From contig NZ_JAJOMY010000003.1 in the NCBI RefSeq assembly GCF_024699945.1, forward strand, positions 1-64,000: a stretch of DNA of 64,000 bases, given 5' to 3'. A model generated the notes under the pieces. The model searched no databases, was not told where the DNA came from, and saw only the letters and a program-made list of their open reading frames with translations. The translations under genes and the position numbers were made by a program. The DNA is from Phenylobacterium sp. J426 (GTDB lineage: Bacteria > Pseudomonadota > Alphaproteobacteria > Caulobacterales > Caulobacteraceae). This document shows positions 24,693 to 26,532 of the stretch, one piece after another; positions within the stretch are counted from its first letter, which is position 1, and the number at the start of each line of letters is the position of its first letter.

Positions 24693-25280
24693 GTGAAGGT
24701 GGACGCCGAGGCGTCCGACAGCAGACTCGCCCGATCAGCCGCGGCTGGGGATGATCGGGCCTTCGCCCTGCTCGTTCGTCGCCATAAGGATGGCCTCTAC
24801 CGGCTGCTCCGCCGCTACACCGGGGACGCCGACGAAGCTTACGAAGCCGTGCACGAAGCCTTCATCGCCGCGTGGAGCGCACTGAAGCGCTACGATTCGG
24901 AGCGCCCCTTTGGCGCCTGGCTGCGCACGATCGCGATCAACAAGGCGCGCGACCGTGGCCGCCGATAGGTGGTCCGTCGTGTGATCTTCGGGTCGGGCGG
25001 TCTCGAGGATACCGAGGCGCTGAGCGCGCCCGACCCGTCGCCCAGCGCCGAGGCCGGCGTTTTGGTGGACGAGCAAGCGATGCGGCTGGACCGCGCCATC
25101 GCGCGGTTGCCGGCGCCCCTGAAGGAGCCGCTTTTGCTCACCGCCTTCGAAGGTCTGAGTCATCACGACGCCGCCCAGATCCTCGGCGTCTCGATCAAGA
25201 CCATCGAGACGCGCGTCTACCGGGCCCGCAAGCTGCTGGCCGAGCAGCTCGACACCGACATGCGGCCCTCCGCTAGGTAA
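24693..25280 (+). pseudogene. ECF sigma factor interrupted by an in-frame TAG
   Basis: A GTG at 24693 opens a sigma-70 region 2 (DRAFALLVRRHKDGLYRLL, then GAWLRTIAINKARDRGRR). TAG at 24966-24968 stops it. The same frame then resumes with VVRRVIFG, a linker, and region 4 (LPAPLKEPLLLTAFEG, IKTIETRVYRARKLLAEQL). A single substitution (for example TTG to TAG) explains the break. No homopolymer is involved, so a real nonsense mutation or a base-call error are both open. No anti-sigma gene is adjacent. Its stop overlaps convergently the end of the nuclease-like gene. Confidence 0.8.
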
Positions 25281-26532
25281 GCCGGTGGGAGACTTTCTCG
25301 AGCGCGGCGACCCCGGACCCGAAACGGGCTATCGCCTCTCGATGCTGCTCCAGGGCGCTATACGGGAGATACCGCACGCTGAGGTCGGCGATCCGGCTGA
25401 AGGCCGGTCTGGCGATCTGCGCCCGCACGTCGGCTTCGCGCTTGTCGGGCGCGACGAGGAACAGGCTGTGAAGTCCGCTCGCGTCGCCGCCCAGCGCCAA
25501 GTCCAGCATTCGCACGATCCCCGAATAGATCGAAGTCGTGTGCTCCACCTCGAAAGCCGCCACGATGGACCCAACCCTGTCGAGCCAGAGCACATCGATG
25601 AGCCGAACGGCCTCGGCGCCGGGCCGACTGTCGAGGACGCTCGGCAGCCGCTCCAGGCAGTGATCGCCCAGGCGACCGGGCCCAAACGGGCGCCCACGAT
25701 CGTTCTGCGCGATCCATACCTCGTAGCCGAGCGCGCGCGCCAGATCGCGAAGCCAGCCCTGGATTTCCGTGTGGGTCCGCGCGTCAGCCTCGGCGGCCGA
25801 GGGTTTGACGGCCTGCGCGCGAACCCTGGCCAGATCCGCCTCCCATTCGGTGCGCGCGGCGGTGTCATTGGTGCGTGGCGGCGGCGCATAGAGCCCCATG
25901 CCCAGGTCGAAGCAGAACGCCGCGGCCGCGCCGAGGTCGTTGGACAGCTGGTCGCGGTATTTGCGATTAAAGGCGATCAGGCCCTGCCGCATCGCCAGGT
26001 ACTCGTCCCAGCGCCCAAGCTTCACGTTGGCGCCAGTCAAGGCGTTGTAGCCGCGCACGATCGCCGTGTTGAACGGCGGCGCGATGGTCGGGTGCAGGAA
26101 GTAGAGTATGTTGGCCACCGCTGGGCCCAGACCCTTGATCTTCAGCGCATCGATCCGGTGAATCTCCGCCAGGACGTGCTCTTCAGTGTCGCAACAGACG
26201 CAGGCGTCTAACAGTTGGCCGAACGCGCGCTGGTTGCCCGGGTGCTCATAGATGTCAGGGATGCGCAGCTTGGGCTTCCACAGGAAGGCATGGTCCGCCC
26301 CTTTGAACACCTGCCGCTGCTCGGCGATCGAATGGACGACGGTCTCCAGAGACGATCCGCGGTAAGCGACGCCGAAGCGCTCGGCCTCGATCTCGGCGGC
26401 CACCTGTTGGACGCCGCGCCGGATCGACCGGAAGTTCTTCAGGCGGTCCTCCCAGAGGAACCAGCTCTGATAGGCGCCTGCCGGATCGTTCCGCCACCGG
26501 CTCAGCAGTTCACGTGTCAACTCGTCGGACAA
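25273..26532 (-). CDS. HhH domain plus nuclease-fold protein, unknown function
   Basis: 419 residues from a TTG at 26532 (GGGGGGAATAGAG upstream; the frame stays open further but that part is antisense to a signal peptide gene). The N-terminal half includes a helix-hairpin-helix segment KIKGLGPAVANILYF followed by PPFNTAIVRGYNAL. The C-terminal half looks like a PD-(D/E)XK restriction-type fold: ALGYEVWIAQNDRGRPF, then RLIDVLWL and AAFEVEHTTSIYSGIVRM, giving candidate acidic residues D and ExE. No methylase or other defence gene is adjacent. Function inferred as DNA binding/cleavage only. Confidence 0.6.
   Translation of the reverse strand: MSDELTRELLSRWRNDPAGAYQSWFLWEDRLKNFRSIRRGVQQVAAEIEAERFGVAYRGSSLETVVHSIAEQRQVFKGADHAFLWKPKLRIPDIYEHPGNQRAFGQLLDACVCCDTEEHVLAEIHRIDALKIKGLGPAVANILYFLHPTIAPPFNTAIVRGYNALTGANVKLGRWDEYLAMRQGLIAFNRKYRDQLSNDLGAAAAFCFDLGMGLYAPPPRTNDTAARTEWEADLARVRAQAVKPSAAEADARTHTEIQGWLRDLARALGYEVWIAQNDRGRPFGPGRLGDHCLERLPSVLDSRPGAEAVRLIDVLWLDRVGSIVAAFEVEHTTSIYSGIVRMLDLALGGDASGLHSLFLVAPDKREADVRAQIARPAFSRIADLSVRYLPYSALEQHREAIARFGSGVAALEKVSHRLT

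What the first reader, a model, noticed from the sequence alone, without database searches (positions are those of the whole stretch)
25273..26532. Unusual HhH plus restriction-fold protein with no partner
It combines a helix-hairpin-helix DNA-binding segment with a C-terminal domain carrying IDVLWL and FEVEHT, the shape of a PD-(D/E)XK nuclease core. No methylase accompanies it. It may be a solitary defence nuclease or a repair nuclease. It lies in cargo DNA between regulators, as defence genes often do.
Basis: inference. Interest (0 to 1): 0.65.

Follow-up and report, generated by a model that had tools for sequence, protein, structure and literature searches.

The report
Copper-cluster nuclease with damage-reader-like domain
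A widely shared but unstudied bacterial protein, usually labelled a restriction enzyme, turns out to travel with copper-resistance genes and looks like a DNA-cutting enzyme guided by a disarmed DNA-damage-reading domain, which suggests that copper resistance may carry its own DNA-care tool.

Summary
The ORF is real (minus strand, 26532 to 25273, TTG start, 419 aa), on a conjugative-type plasmid of about 118.5 kb. The predicted C-terminal half is a PD-(D/E)XK nuclease core with D313...E328-x-E330 (ExE, not ExK), invariant in 90 of 90 aligned rows. The predicted N-terminal half resembles HhH-GPD DNA glycosylases, nearest to 8-oxoguanine glycosylases, but by motif alignment both catalytic residues are gone (Ala138, Asn155). 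No methyltransferase was found nearby. Relatives sit in copper-resistance clusters, not defence islands: a Cu-ATPase lies within 20 kb in 26 of 40 genomes (1.3 expected), the MerA control in 1 of 13. In a second, phylum-wide sample 11 of 15 loci have copper genes nearby; in three the gene follows copB with a 1-nt stop/start overlap. The Cupriavidus metallidurans orthologue is CopL (Rmet_6120), a cop-cluster gene for which no function was seen in the passages read. Best reading: a copper-cluster accessory endonuclease that incises DNA at abnormal bases. The copper link is well supported; nuclease activity, substrate and role are inferred. Rivals: modification-dependent restriction, hitch-hiking orphan restriction enzyme, DNA-binding regulator.

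The parts
25273..26532 (-). copL-like gene, 419 aa, TTG start, stop at 25273-25275
   Evidence: relatives align from residue 1
25810..26532 (-). N-terminal domain, residues 1-241, HhH-GPD (DNA glycosylase)-like predicted fold
   Evidence: model m8c926db1ce33, pLDDT 84.2, pTM 0.85; VIA rows 1-19 are DNA glycosylases, best 3knt Z 7.7, 163 aligned
26113..26136 (-). HhH hairpin K133-G-L-G-P-A-V-A140; Ala138 where EndoIII has the catalytic Lys
   Evidence: catalytic role recalled
26068..26070 (-). Asn155, where EndoIII/MutY have the catalytic Asp; Asn in 90 of 90 rows
   Evidence: motif comparison with own-genome Nth and MutY; counts; catalytic role recalled
25276..25800 (-). C-terminal domain, residues 245-419, PD-(D/E)XK nuclease predicted fold
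   Evidence: model mc7769dd25b8b, pLDDT 80.4; VIA best 2p14 Z 8.7, 139 aligned
25594..25596 (-). Asp313, presumed metal ligand
   Evidence: 90 of 90 rows
25543..25551 (-). Glu328-Val-Glu330, the ExE pair of the presumed active site
   Evidence: Glu328 and Glu330 in 90 of 90 rows
24693..25280 (+). neighbour: ECF sigma factor gene, convergent; interrupted by an in-frame TAG at 24966-24968
   Evidence: Pfam region 2 and region 4 in the two halves; intact in L011
24081..24572 (+). neighbour: CusF copper-binding periplasmic protein
   Evidence: PF11604 2.2e-16
26611..27165 (+). neighbour: DUF4440/SnoaL-like gene, 5' part only, divergent
   Evidence: matches L011:9414-9920 well up to about residue 110; L011 copy is SnoaL_3
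27008..27352 (+). neighbour: OmpR-type response regulator, C-terminal part
   Evidence: PF00486
27349..28797 (+). neighbour: sensor histidine kinase
   Evidence: PF00512, PF02518
18128..18625 (-). neighbour: DUF305 protein
   Evidence: PF03713 1.3e-10
6176..11159 (-). neighbour, 14-20 kb away: RND efflux system (permease, HlyD-type adaptor, OEP), in pieces
   Evidence: PF00873, PF16576, PF02321
45100..63404 (.). plasmid backbone: RepA, VirB4, VirD4-type coupling protein, relaxase, MobC

Best explanation
A CopL-type, copper-cluster-associated endonuclease. Its N-terminal half is a DNA-glycosylase-like (HhH-GPD) fold that seems to have lost the residues for base removal and probably serves as a reader that finds an abnormal base. 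Its C-terminal half is a metal-dependent PD-(D/E)XK-fold nuclease with a D...ExE site that probably cuts the DNA there. Because the substrate would be abnormal DNA, no protecting methylase is needed. It is carried with copper-resistance genes, in some lineages in one operon-like run, and most likely helps the cell incise and clear DNA lesions under copper (plus oxidant) stress. Shown here: conservation, predicted folds, copper-cluster linkage, operon-like arrangement in some lineages. Inferred: that the glycosylase site is dead, that the domain reads a base, that the nuclease is active, that the biological role is repair.
For: Copper linkage: Cu-ATPase TIGR01511 within 5/10/20 kb in 15/19/26 of 40 genomes against 0.39/0.69/1.28 expected; CopA TIGR01480 within 10 kb in 10 of the 19 genomes that have one over cut-off, 0.20 expected; MerA control 0 of 13 within 10 kb and 1 of 13 within 20 kb. 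Marker test: 62 of 92 target loci against 2 of 16 MerA stretches and 0 of 20 other oxidoreductase stretches. Phylum sample: 11 of 15 loci; in L183, L184 and L186 an ATG of the gene overlaps the copB stop by 1 nt, and in L182 it starts 6 nt after a P-type ATPase gene. Orthologue: CopL/Rmet_6120 of CH34, 61% identity over its length, inside the cop1 cluster. Folds. D313, E328, E330 and N155 invariant in 90 of 90. The same nuclease domain (38% identity, E 9e-22) is joined in Calidithermus to an EVE domain; EVE domains bind modified bases, and EVE-PD-(D/E)XK proteins are described as putative modification-dependent enzymes (PMC7641849, passages). Purifying selection: dN/dS 0.063-0.140 in 5 pairs.
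Against: A paper title seen in a reference list (Macomber, Rensing and Imlay 2007; paper not read) says intracellular copper does not catalyse oxidative DNA damage in E. coli. In CH34 acutely exposed to copper the whole cop1 cluster was up-regulated except copE and copL (PMC7563307). CopL was not found in the CH34 proteome (PMC11647595). Profile comparison with Nth, MutY and a third glycosylase set gave no support, so the HhH-GPD reading rests on fold and motif. Its Z of 7.7 is modest for an all-helical domain (the tool warns that below about 13 a helical match may be only a common arrangement), and Foldseek E-values are weak (best 0.027-0.044). 30 of 92 loci had no copper marker within 9.9 kb, 13 of them with 20 kb or more of sequence, and 4 of 15 in the phylum sample. 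No activity is measured in anything I saw.
Confidence: 0.42

Rival explanations
1. A modification-dependent (type IV-like) restriction enzyme: the HhH-GPD-like half reads a modified base in incoming phage or plasmid DNA and the nuclease destroys it; the copper genes are only fellow cargo.
For: Same nuclease domain with an EVE reader in Calidithermus; EVE-PD-(D/E)XK proteins are described as putative modification-dependent enzymes (PMC7641849, passages). PADLOC REase_II match. Plasmid location: 179 of 72,556 plasmid records.
Against: Neighbourhood is copper-linked, not mercury-linked, and no defence model recurs in more than 3 of 148 immediate neighbours; coupling to copB in L183, L184, L186; high conservation (63-78% identity in 73 of the 80 loci kept) is unlike an arms-race enzyme; not found in phage records.
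Confidence: 0.25
2. An orphan type II restriction enzyme or selfish nuclease that hitch-hikes on copper-resistance islands.
For: Annotated as 'type II restriction endonuclease' in many records; fold neighbours include type II enzymes such as R.BspD6I, BamHI and BstEII.
Against: No DNA methylase among the 25 commonest Pfam families of 148 immediate neighbours (106 families in all, the rest not shown; three members match general methyltransferase families); on this replicon the only one found is 47 kb or more away; an active sequence-specific enzyme without methylase would cut its host; strong purifying selection; operon-like coupling.
Confidence: 0.1
3. A DNA-binding regulator or copper sensor of the cop cluster whose nuclease is used little or not at all.
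For: HhH-type half; called 'cys-rich cytosolic protein' (PMC7563307); Cys111/113/114 in 88/83/82 of 90 rows; primary and antisense start sites at copL in CH34.
Against: D313, E328, E330 and T333 invariant in 90 of 90, which a dead nuclease would hardly keep; the Cys trio is broken in the Enterococcus, Listeria, Hymenobacter, Spirosoma and Leptolyngbya members.
Confidence: 0.12
4. A copper-overload suicide or DNA-degradation effector that removes cells or competing replicons when copper resistance fails.
For: Predicted nuclease inside metal-stress clusters.
Against: No recurrent antidote-like neighbour among the families shown and no gating domain in the model; a copL start site is listed for CH34 cells grown without metal challenge (PMC9045368).
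Confidence: 0.07

Closest known systems
CopL (Rmet_6120) of Cupriavidus metallidurans CH34 plasmid pMOL30
   Same: Full-length orthologue, 61% identity; lies in the cop1 cluster between copO/copF and copQ/copH
   Different: In the passages seen only expression facts are given, and it is called a cys-rich cytosolic protein. No nuclease or glycosylase-fold reading was seen. Not the CopL of Xanthomonas, which shares only the name (recalled)
EVE-PD-(D/E)XK modification-dependent restriction enzymes
   Same: Base-reader domain followed by a PD-(D/E)XK nuclease; one EVE protein in Calidithermus shares the nuclease domain at 38% identity
   Different: The presumed reader is an HhH-GPD-like fold instead of EVE; the context is copper resistance
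HhH-GPD DNA glycosylases (OGG2, OGG1, MutY, EndoIII)
   Same: Predicted fold of residues 1-220 and HhH hairpin
   Different: Catalytic Lys and Asp positions are Ala and Asn by motif alignment; no Pfam match; fused to a nuclease
BamHI-type and R.BspD6I PD-(D/E)XK endonucleases
   Same: Nuclease core fold (Z 6.1 and 8.7); ExE active-site pair as in BamHI (the BamHI residues are recalled)
   Different: Extra N-terminal reader-like half; no methylase nearby; high conservation across phyla
NucS/EndoMS repair endonuclease
   Same: PD-(D/E)XK nuclease used for repair; fold rows Z 6.7 and 6.5
   Different: Different N-terminal half (recalled for NucS); a clamp-binding motif was not sought here

Membership tests
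PD-(D/E)XK nuclease superfamily | alpha-beta core fold | tested here: met
   model strands 271-274, 314-317, 323-329, 356-361, 386-390 with flanking helices; VIA Z 8.7 to 2p14, and most of the 50 rows shown align to this half, many of them restriction or repair endonucleases. Predicted model only
PD-(D/E)XK nuclease superfamily | conserved Asp and (D/E)xK | tested here: inconclusive
   Asp313 and Glu328 in 90 of 90; the Lys position is Glu330 in 90 of 90; ExE is a known variant (recalled for BamHI)
PD-(D/E)XK nuclease superfamily | metal-dependent DNA cleavage | not testable with these tools
   needs protein
HhH-GPD DNA glycosylases | helical fold with HhH hairpin | tested here: met
   rows 1-19 of the N-terminal VIA list are all DNA glycosylases, Z 7.7 to 4.5; first other row Z 4.3. 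Fold level only, modest Z for a helical domain
HhH-GPD DNA glycosylases | sequence-profile kinship | tested here: not met
   no Pfam match; hhalign against Nth (12 sequences), MutY (1) and a third set (2), probability 0.1-0.3% (shallow alignments, Neff under 2)
HhH-GPD DNA glycosylases | catalytic Asp (and Lys in bifunctional members; recalled) | tested here: not met
   Asn155 and Ala138 at the motif-aligned places; alignment by motif, with a one-residue shift
Type II restriction-modification | cognate DNA methyltransferase encoded nearby | tested here: not met
   three methylase families searched in the own genome; nearest match on the replicon 47 kb or more away; none among the 25 commonest of 106 families in 148 neighbours
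Type II restriction-modification | cleavage at a fixed unmodified sequence | not testable with these tools
   needs protein
Modification-dependent (type IV) restriction enzymes | modified-base reader plus nuclease | tested here: inconclusive
   architecture fits; reader function of this HhH-GPD-like half not shown
Anti-phage defence genes | recurrent neighbourhood with defence genes | tested here: not met
   PADLOC on 148 immediate neighbours: no model with more than 3 members (no background set was run); copper-type families lead in Pfam
CopL orthologues of copper clusters | full-length identity and place in a copper-resistance cluster | tested here: met
   in the window itself CusF within 1 kb, DUF305 and RND genes further off, no Cu-ATPase or CopA within 9.9 kb

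The most novel reading that the evidence does not exclude
Mobile copper-resistance clusters in at least five phyla carry a dedicated DNA-incision enzyme: a glycosylase fold stripped of catalysis and reused as a lesion reader, wired to a PD-(D/E)xE nuclease. This would be a layer of copper resistance that protects DNA, not ions or proteins, and a reader-nuclease pairing that my literature searches did not turn up.
Probability: 0.35. Interest if true: 0.85.

Novelty: new variant of a known kind. Interest (0 to 1): 0.68.

Why it matters
Known copper resistance works mainly by export, oxidation and sequestration (recalled). A conserved, predicted cytosolic nuclease that travels with those genes from Proteobacteria to Firmicutes implies that copper threatens DNA, or that copper clusters guard against DNA entry, in a way current models do not include. 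It also gives one testable function to a large set of proteins now labelled 'type II restriction endonuclease' or 'hypothetical protein', and to CopL of the much-studied CH34 copper cluster, for which I saw no function in the passages read.

Tried and rejected
Second gene copy in the own genome at C3:143736-144989: rejected as an assembly artefact. The last 29 kb of the 147,449-base contig repeat window 1-28988 at 97-99% with many gaps, so the plasmid is read as a circle of about 118.5 kb left unjoined.

PDB sequence matches to coronavirus spike and gp41 chains at residues 130-219 and 5-71: rejected as helix/coiled-coil composition; such chains are not among the rows shown by the fold searches.

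Cys111-x-Cys-Cys as a universal copper site: rejected as a family-wide feature, since it is broken in the Firmicutes, Bacteroidota and cyanobacterial members.

Copper-regulator operators upstream: CueR-like dyads (one mismatch allowed) in 10 of 89 upstream stretches against 2.8 expected; the CH34 dyad may serve the divergent copO. No CopY box in the 200 bases upstream of the one Enterococcus and one Listeria gene looked at. Too weak to use.

Profile comparison with glycosylases gave nothing; the alignments were shallow, two of the three sets held one or two sequences.

Absent rows in fold lists were not taken as evidence.
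Full report
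WHAT IS THERE. The finding's interval holds one minus-strand ORF. The longest version starts at 26772, but relatives align from a TTG at 26532, behind GGGGGGAA, giving 419 aa ending at 25273. Pfam, NCBIfam and PHROGs find nothing; PADLOC's REase_II model matches residues 251-397 at 1.8e-12. In the own genome the window lies on contig C3, whose last 29 kb repeat window 1-28988 with many small gaps. So the replicon is read as a circle of about 118.5 kb, and the apparent second copy reported as an assembly artefact. RepA, VirB4, a VirD4-type protein, a relaxase and MobC make it a conjugative-type plasmid.

THE PROTEIN. In an alignment of 90 rows (window included; two rows under 380 aa were dropped, near-identical rows kept) Asp313, Glu328, Glu330, Thr333, His254, Gln258 and Asp278 are in 90 of 90, as are Gly134, Gly136, Pro137 and Asn155. 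The rows include members only 39-48% identical from Hymenobacter, Spirosoma, Leptolyngbya, Enterococcus and Listeria. AlphaFold2 with 54 sequences gives pLDDT 80.4 for the whole and 84.2 (pTM 0.85) for residues 1-242 alone. The C-terminal half matches PD-(D/E)XK nucleases: R.BspD6I small subunit Z 8.7 over 139 residues, Nt.BspD6I 7.9, NucS/EndoMS 6.7 and 6.5, BamHI 6.1. The active-site pair is ExE where the textbook motif is ExK. The N-terminal half alone gives DNA glycosylases in rows 1-19: M. jannaschii 8-oxoguanine glycosylase Z 7.7 over 163 residues, T. maritima Ogg 7.2, OGG1 5.4, MutY 4.9; the first other protein has Z 4.3. These Z values are modest for an all-helical domain (the tool's own warning sets about 13), Foldseek E-values are weak, and profile comparison with Nth and MutY fails, so this is a fold-and-motif reading. 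Placing the window's IKGLGPAVA...FNTAIVR against the own genome's Nth LPGVGRKTA...VDTHVFR puts Ala138 at the catalytic Lys and Asn155 at the catalytic Asp (roles recalled). If right, base removal is lost and only reading is left.

A SISTER ARCHITECTURE. Calidithermus has, besides its full-length copy, a protein with the same nuclease domain (38% identity, E 9e-22) behind an EVE domain (PF01878, 3.2e-5). EVE domains bind modified bases, and EVE-PD-(D/E)XK proteins are described as putative modification-dependent restriction enzymes (PMC7641849, passages seen). So this nuclease domain occurs with at least two different N-terminal halves. In plasmids the nuclease domain alone finds 178 records, against 179 for the whole protein, with nearly the same organism counts.

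THE COPPER LINK. Fourteen named plasmid neighbourhoods (of 179 records) were opened. Copper or heavy-metal genes are near in: Caulobacter p1 (copB, multicopper oxidase, CueR, ATPase, copper-binding protein), C. metallidurans pMOL30 inside cop1, Deinococcus (heavy-metal ATPases on both sides), Rhodococcus (CopC), Leptolyngbya (heavy-metal ATPase and RND efflux), Enterococcus (CopY, ATPase, copper oxidase), Listeria (DUF2933, CopY, multicopper oxidase), Komagataeibacter (copper ATPase next door), Roseomonas and Sphingobium. Weak or missing: Pseudarthrobacter (DUF2933 8.6 kb away), Hymenobacter and Spirosoma (DUF305, in one also DUF4396), Streptomyces (heavy-metal-associated domain protein, DUF305). 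Then counts. The genomes of 41 of the 80 named loci were asked for and 40 were held; they hold 44 near-full-length places of the gene (partial matches dropped). A Cu-ATPase over cut-off lies within 5, 10 and 20 kb in 15, 19 and 26 of 40, against 0.39, 0.69 and 1.28 expected from genome size and number of hits; the maximum in 200,000 simulations was 6, 7 and 8 (the hit list stopped just above the cut-off, so a few hits may be missing). With ten copper markers within 9.9 kb: 62 of 92 target loci (80 named genome loci, 11 plasmid loci, the window), 2 of 16 MerA stretches, and 0 of 20 stretches around other, sub-cut-off oxidoreductase matches. The marker sequences came from four of the plasmid loci; leaving out all 11 plasmid loci gives 53 of 81. 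Of the 30 targets without a marker, 13 had 20 kb or more of sequence; the rest were shorter. Near-identical loci were not removed. The nearest marker is within 500 bp in 24 and within 2 kb in 42 of the 62. Among 148 immediate neighbours P-type ATPase families lead with 10 members.

A SECOND SAMPLE. 398 genomes drawn evenly over the phylum: 15 have the gene, the own genome included. Whether some of these are the same genomes as in the first set was not checked. The 15 places outside the own genome (14 genomes; 8 of the places in one family) were fetched: 11 have a copper marker. In three (L183, L184, L186) the order is multicopper oxidase, copB, then this gene, with an ATG of the gene overlapping the copB stop by one base; in a fourth (L182) it starts 6 bases after a P-type ATPase gene. 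Four (L176, L187, L188, L189) have none; L187 and L188 share one chromosomal-looking setting without copper markers.

THE WINDOW ITSELF. Around the gene: CusF, an ECF sigma factor (convergent), a response regulator and histidine kinase, cytochrome c, DUF305 and, 14-20 kb away, RND efflux pieces. This is a copper region by content, though no Cu-ATPase or CopA was identified within 9.9 kb. In two congeners a Cu-ATPase is 2.8 kb away.

WHAT IS IN PRINT. The CH34 orthologue is CopL: TSS_181983-4 is '14 bp upstr. Rmet_6120' (PMC9045368, passages) and the gene starts at 181969 on the minus strand. PMC7563307 (passages) calls it a cys-rich cytosolic protein, not up-regulated in acute copper, with a primary and a copper-induced antisense start site. 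PMC11647585 (passages and section 8 part 1) lists copL among cop genes with up-regulated sense and antisense transcripts in a metal mix. PMC11647595 (passage) did not find CopL in the proteome. Searches for a link of this family with restriction, repair or nuclease in copper clusters gave listings (none), and I saw no such link in these or in passages of four of the papers. Subscription papers are mostly not held.

MOBILITY AND SELECTION. The gene is patchy: 4 of 100 relatives, own genome included, 15 of 398 in the phylum; a pattern scan of the 84,980-species collection gave 377 stretches, 275 of them confirmed relatives, of which 80 were kept. The tree groups some rows of different phyla with good support, for example two betaproteobacterial rows within Acidobacteriota rows, though metagenome bins can mislead and the tool warns that this is no proof of transfer. 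dN/dS of 0.063-0.140 in five pairs shows that it is kept under selection.

HOW IT MOST LIKELY WORKS. Inference: the disarmed glycosylase-like half flips or senses an abnormal base, the nuclease half cuts nearby, and ordinary repair finishes. Against a repair role stand a paper title on the lack of copper-driven oxidative DNA damage in E. coli (seen in a reference list) and the mixed evidence on copper induction. A type IV role against modified DNA remains the main rival, and the copper linkage would then be unexplained.

VERDICT. Ordinary as folds, unusual as a combination, and surprising in context: a predicted nuclease that belongs to copper-resistance clusters across phyla.

Noticed in passing
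window 24693-25280: ECF sigma factor gene is cut by an in-frame TAG at 24966-24968; both halves keep their Pfam regions and the L011 copy is intact. May be a sequencing error or a real nonsense change.
   Followed up: partly
window 26611-27352: A DUF4440/SnoaL-like gene loses close homology after about residue 110, and the next ORF is a response regulator without its receiver part; looks like an internal deletion joining the two genes.
   Followed up: partly
G000 contig C3, about 118,490-147,449: Error-rich repeat of window 1-28988: an unjoined circular plasmid of about 118.5 kb.
   Followed up: yes
L105:6579-7673 (Calidithermus): EVE domain joined to the same nuclease domain; by eye no copper genes among the ORFs listed around it.
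   Followed up: partly
G000 contig C3:95979-97071: C5 DNA methylase on the same plasmid, in two open-frame pieces, far from the nuclease.
   Followed up: no
L187 and L188: Chromosomal-looking copies at 46% identity in a shared setting without copper markers: a possible settled, non-copper branch.
   Followed up: no
window 41036-42777: DUF4411 gene next to an IrrE-type peptidase gene, which may be a toxin-antitoxin-like pair (the pair reading is recalled).
   Followed up: no
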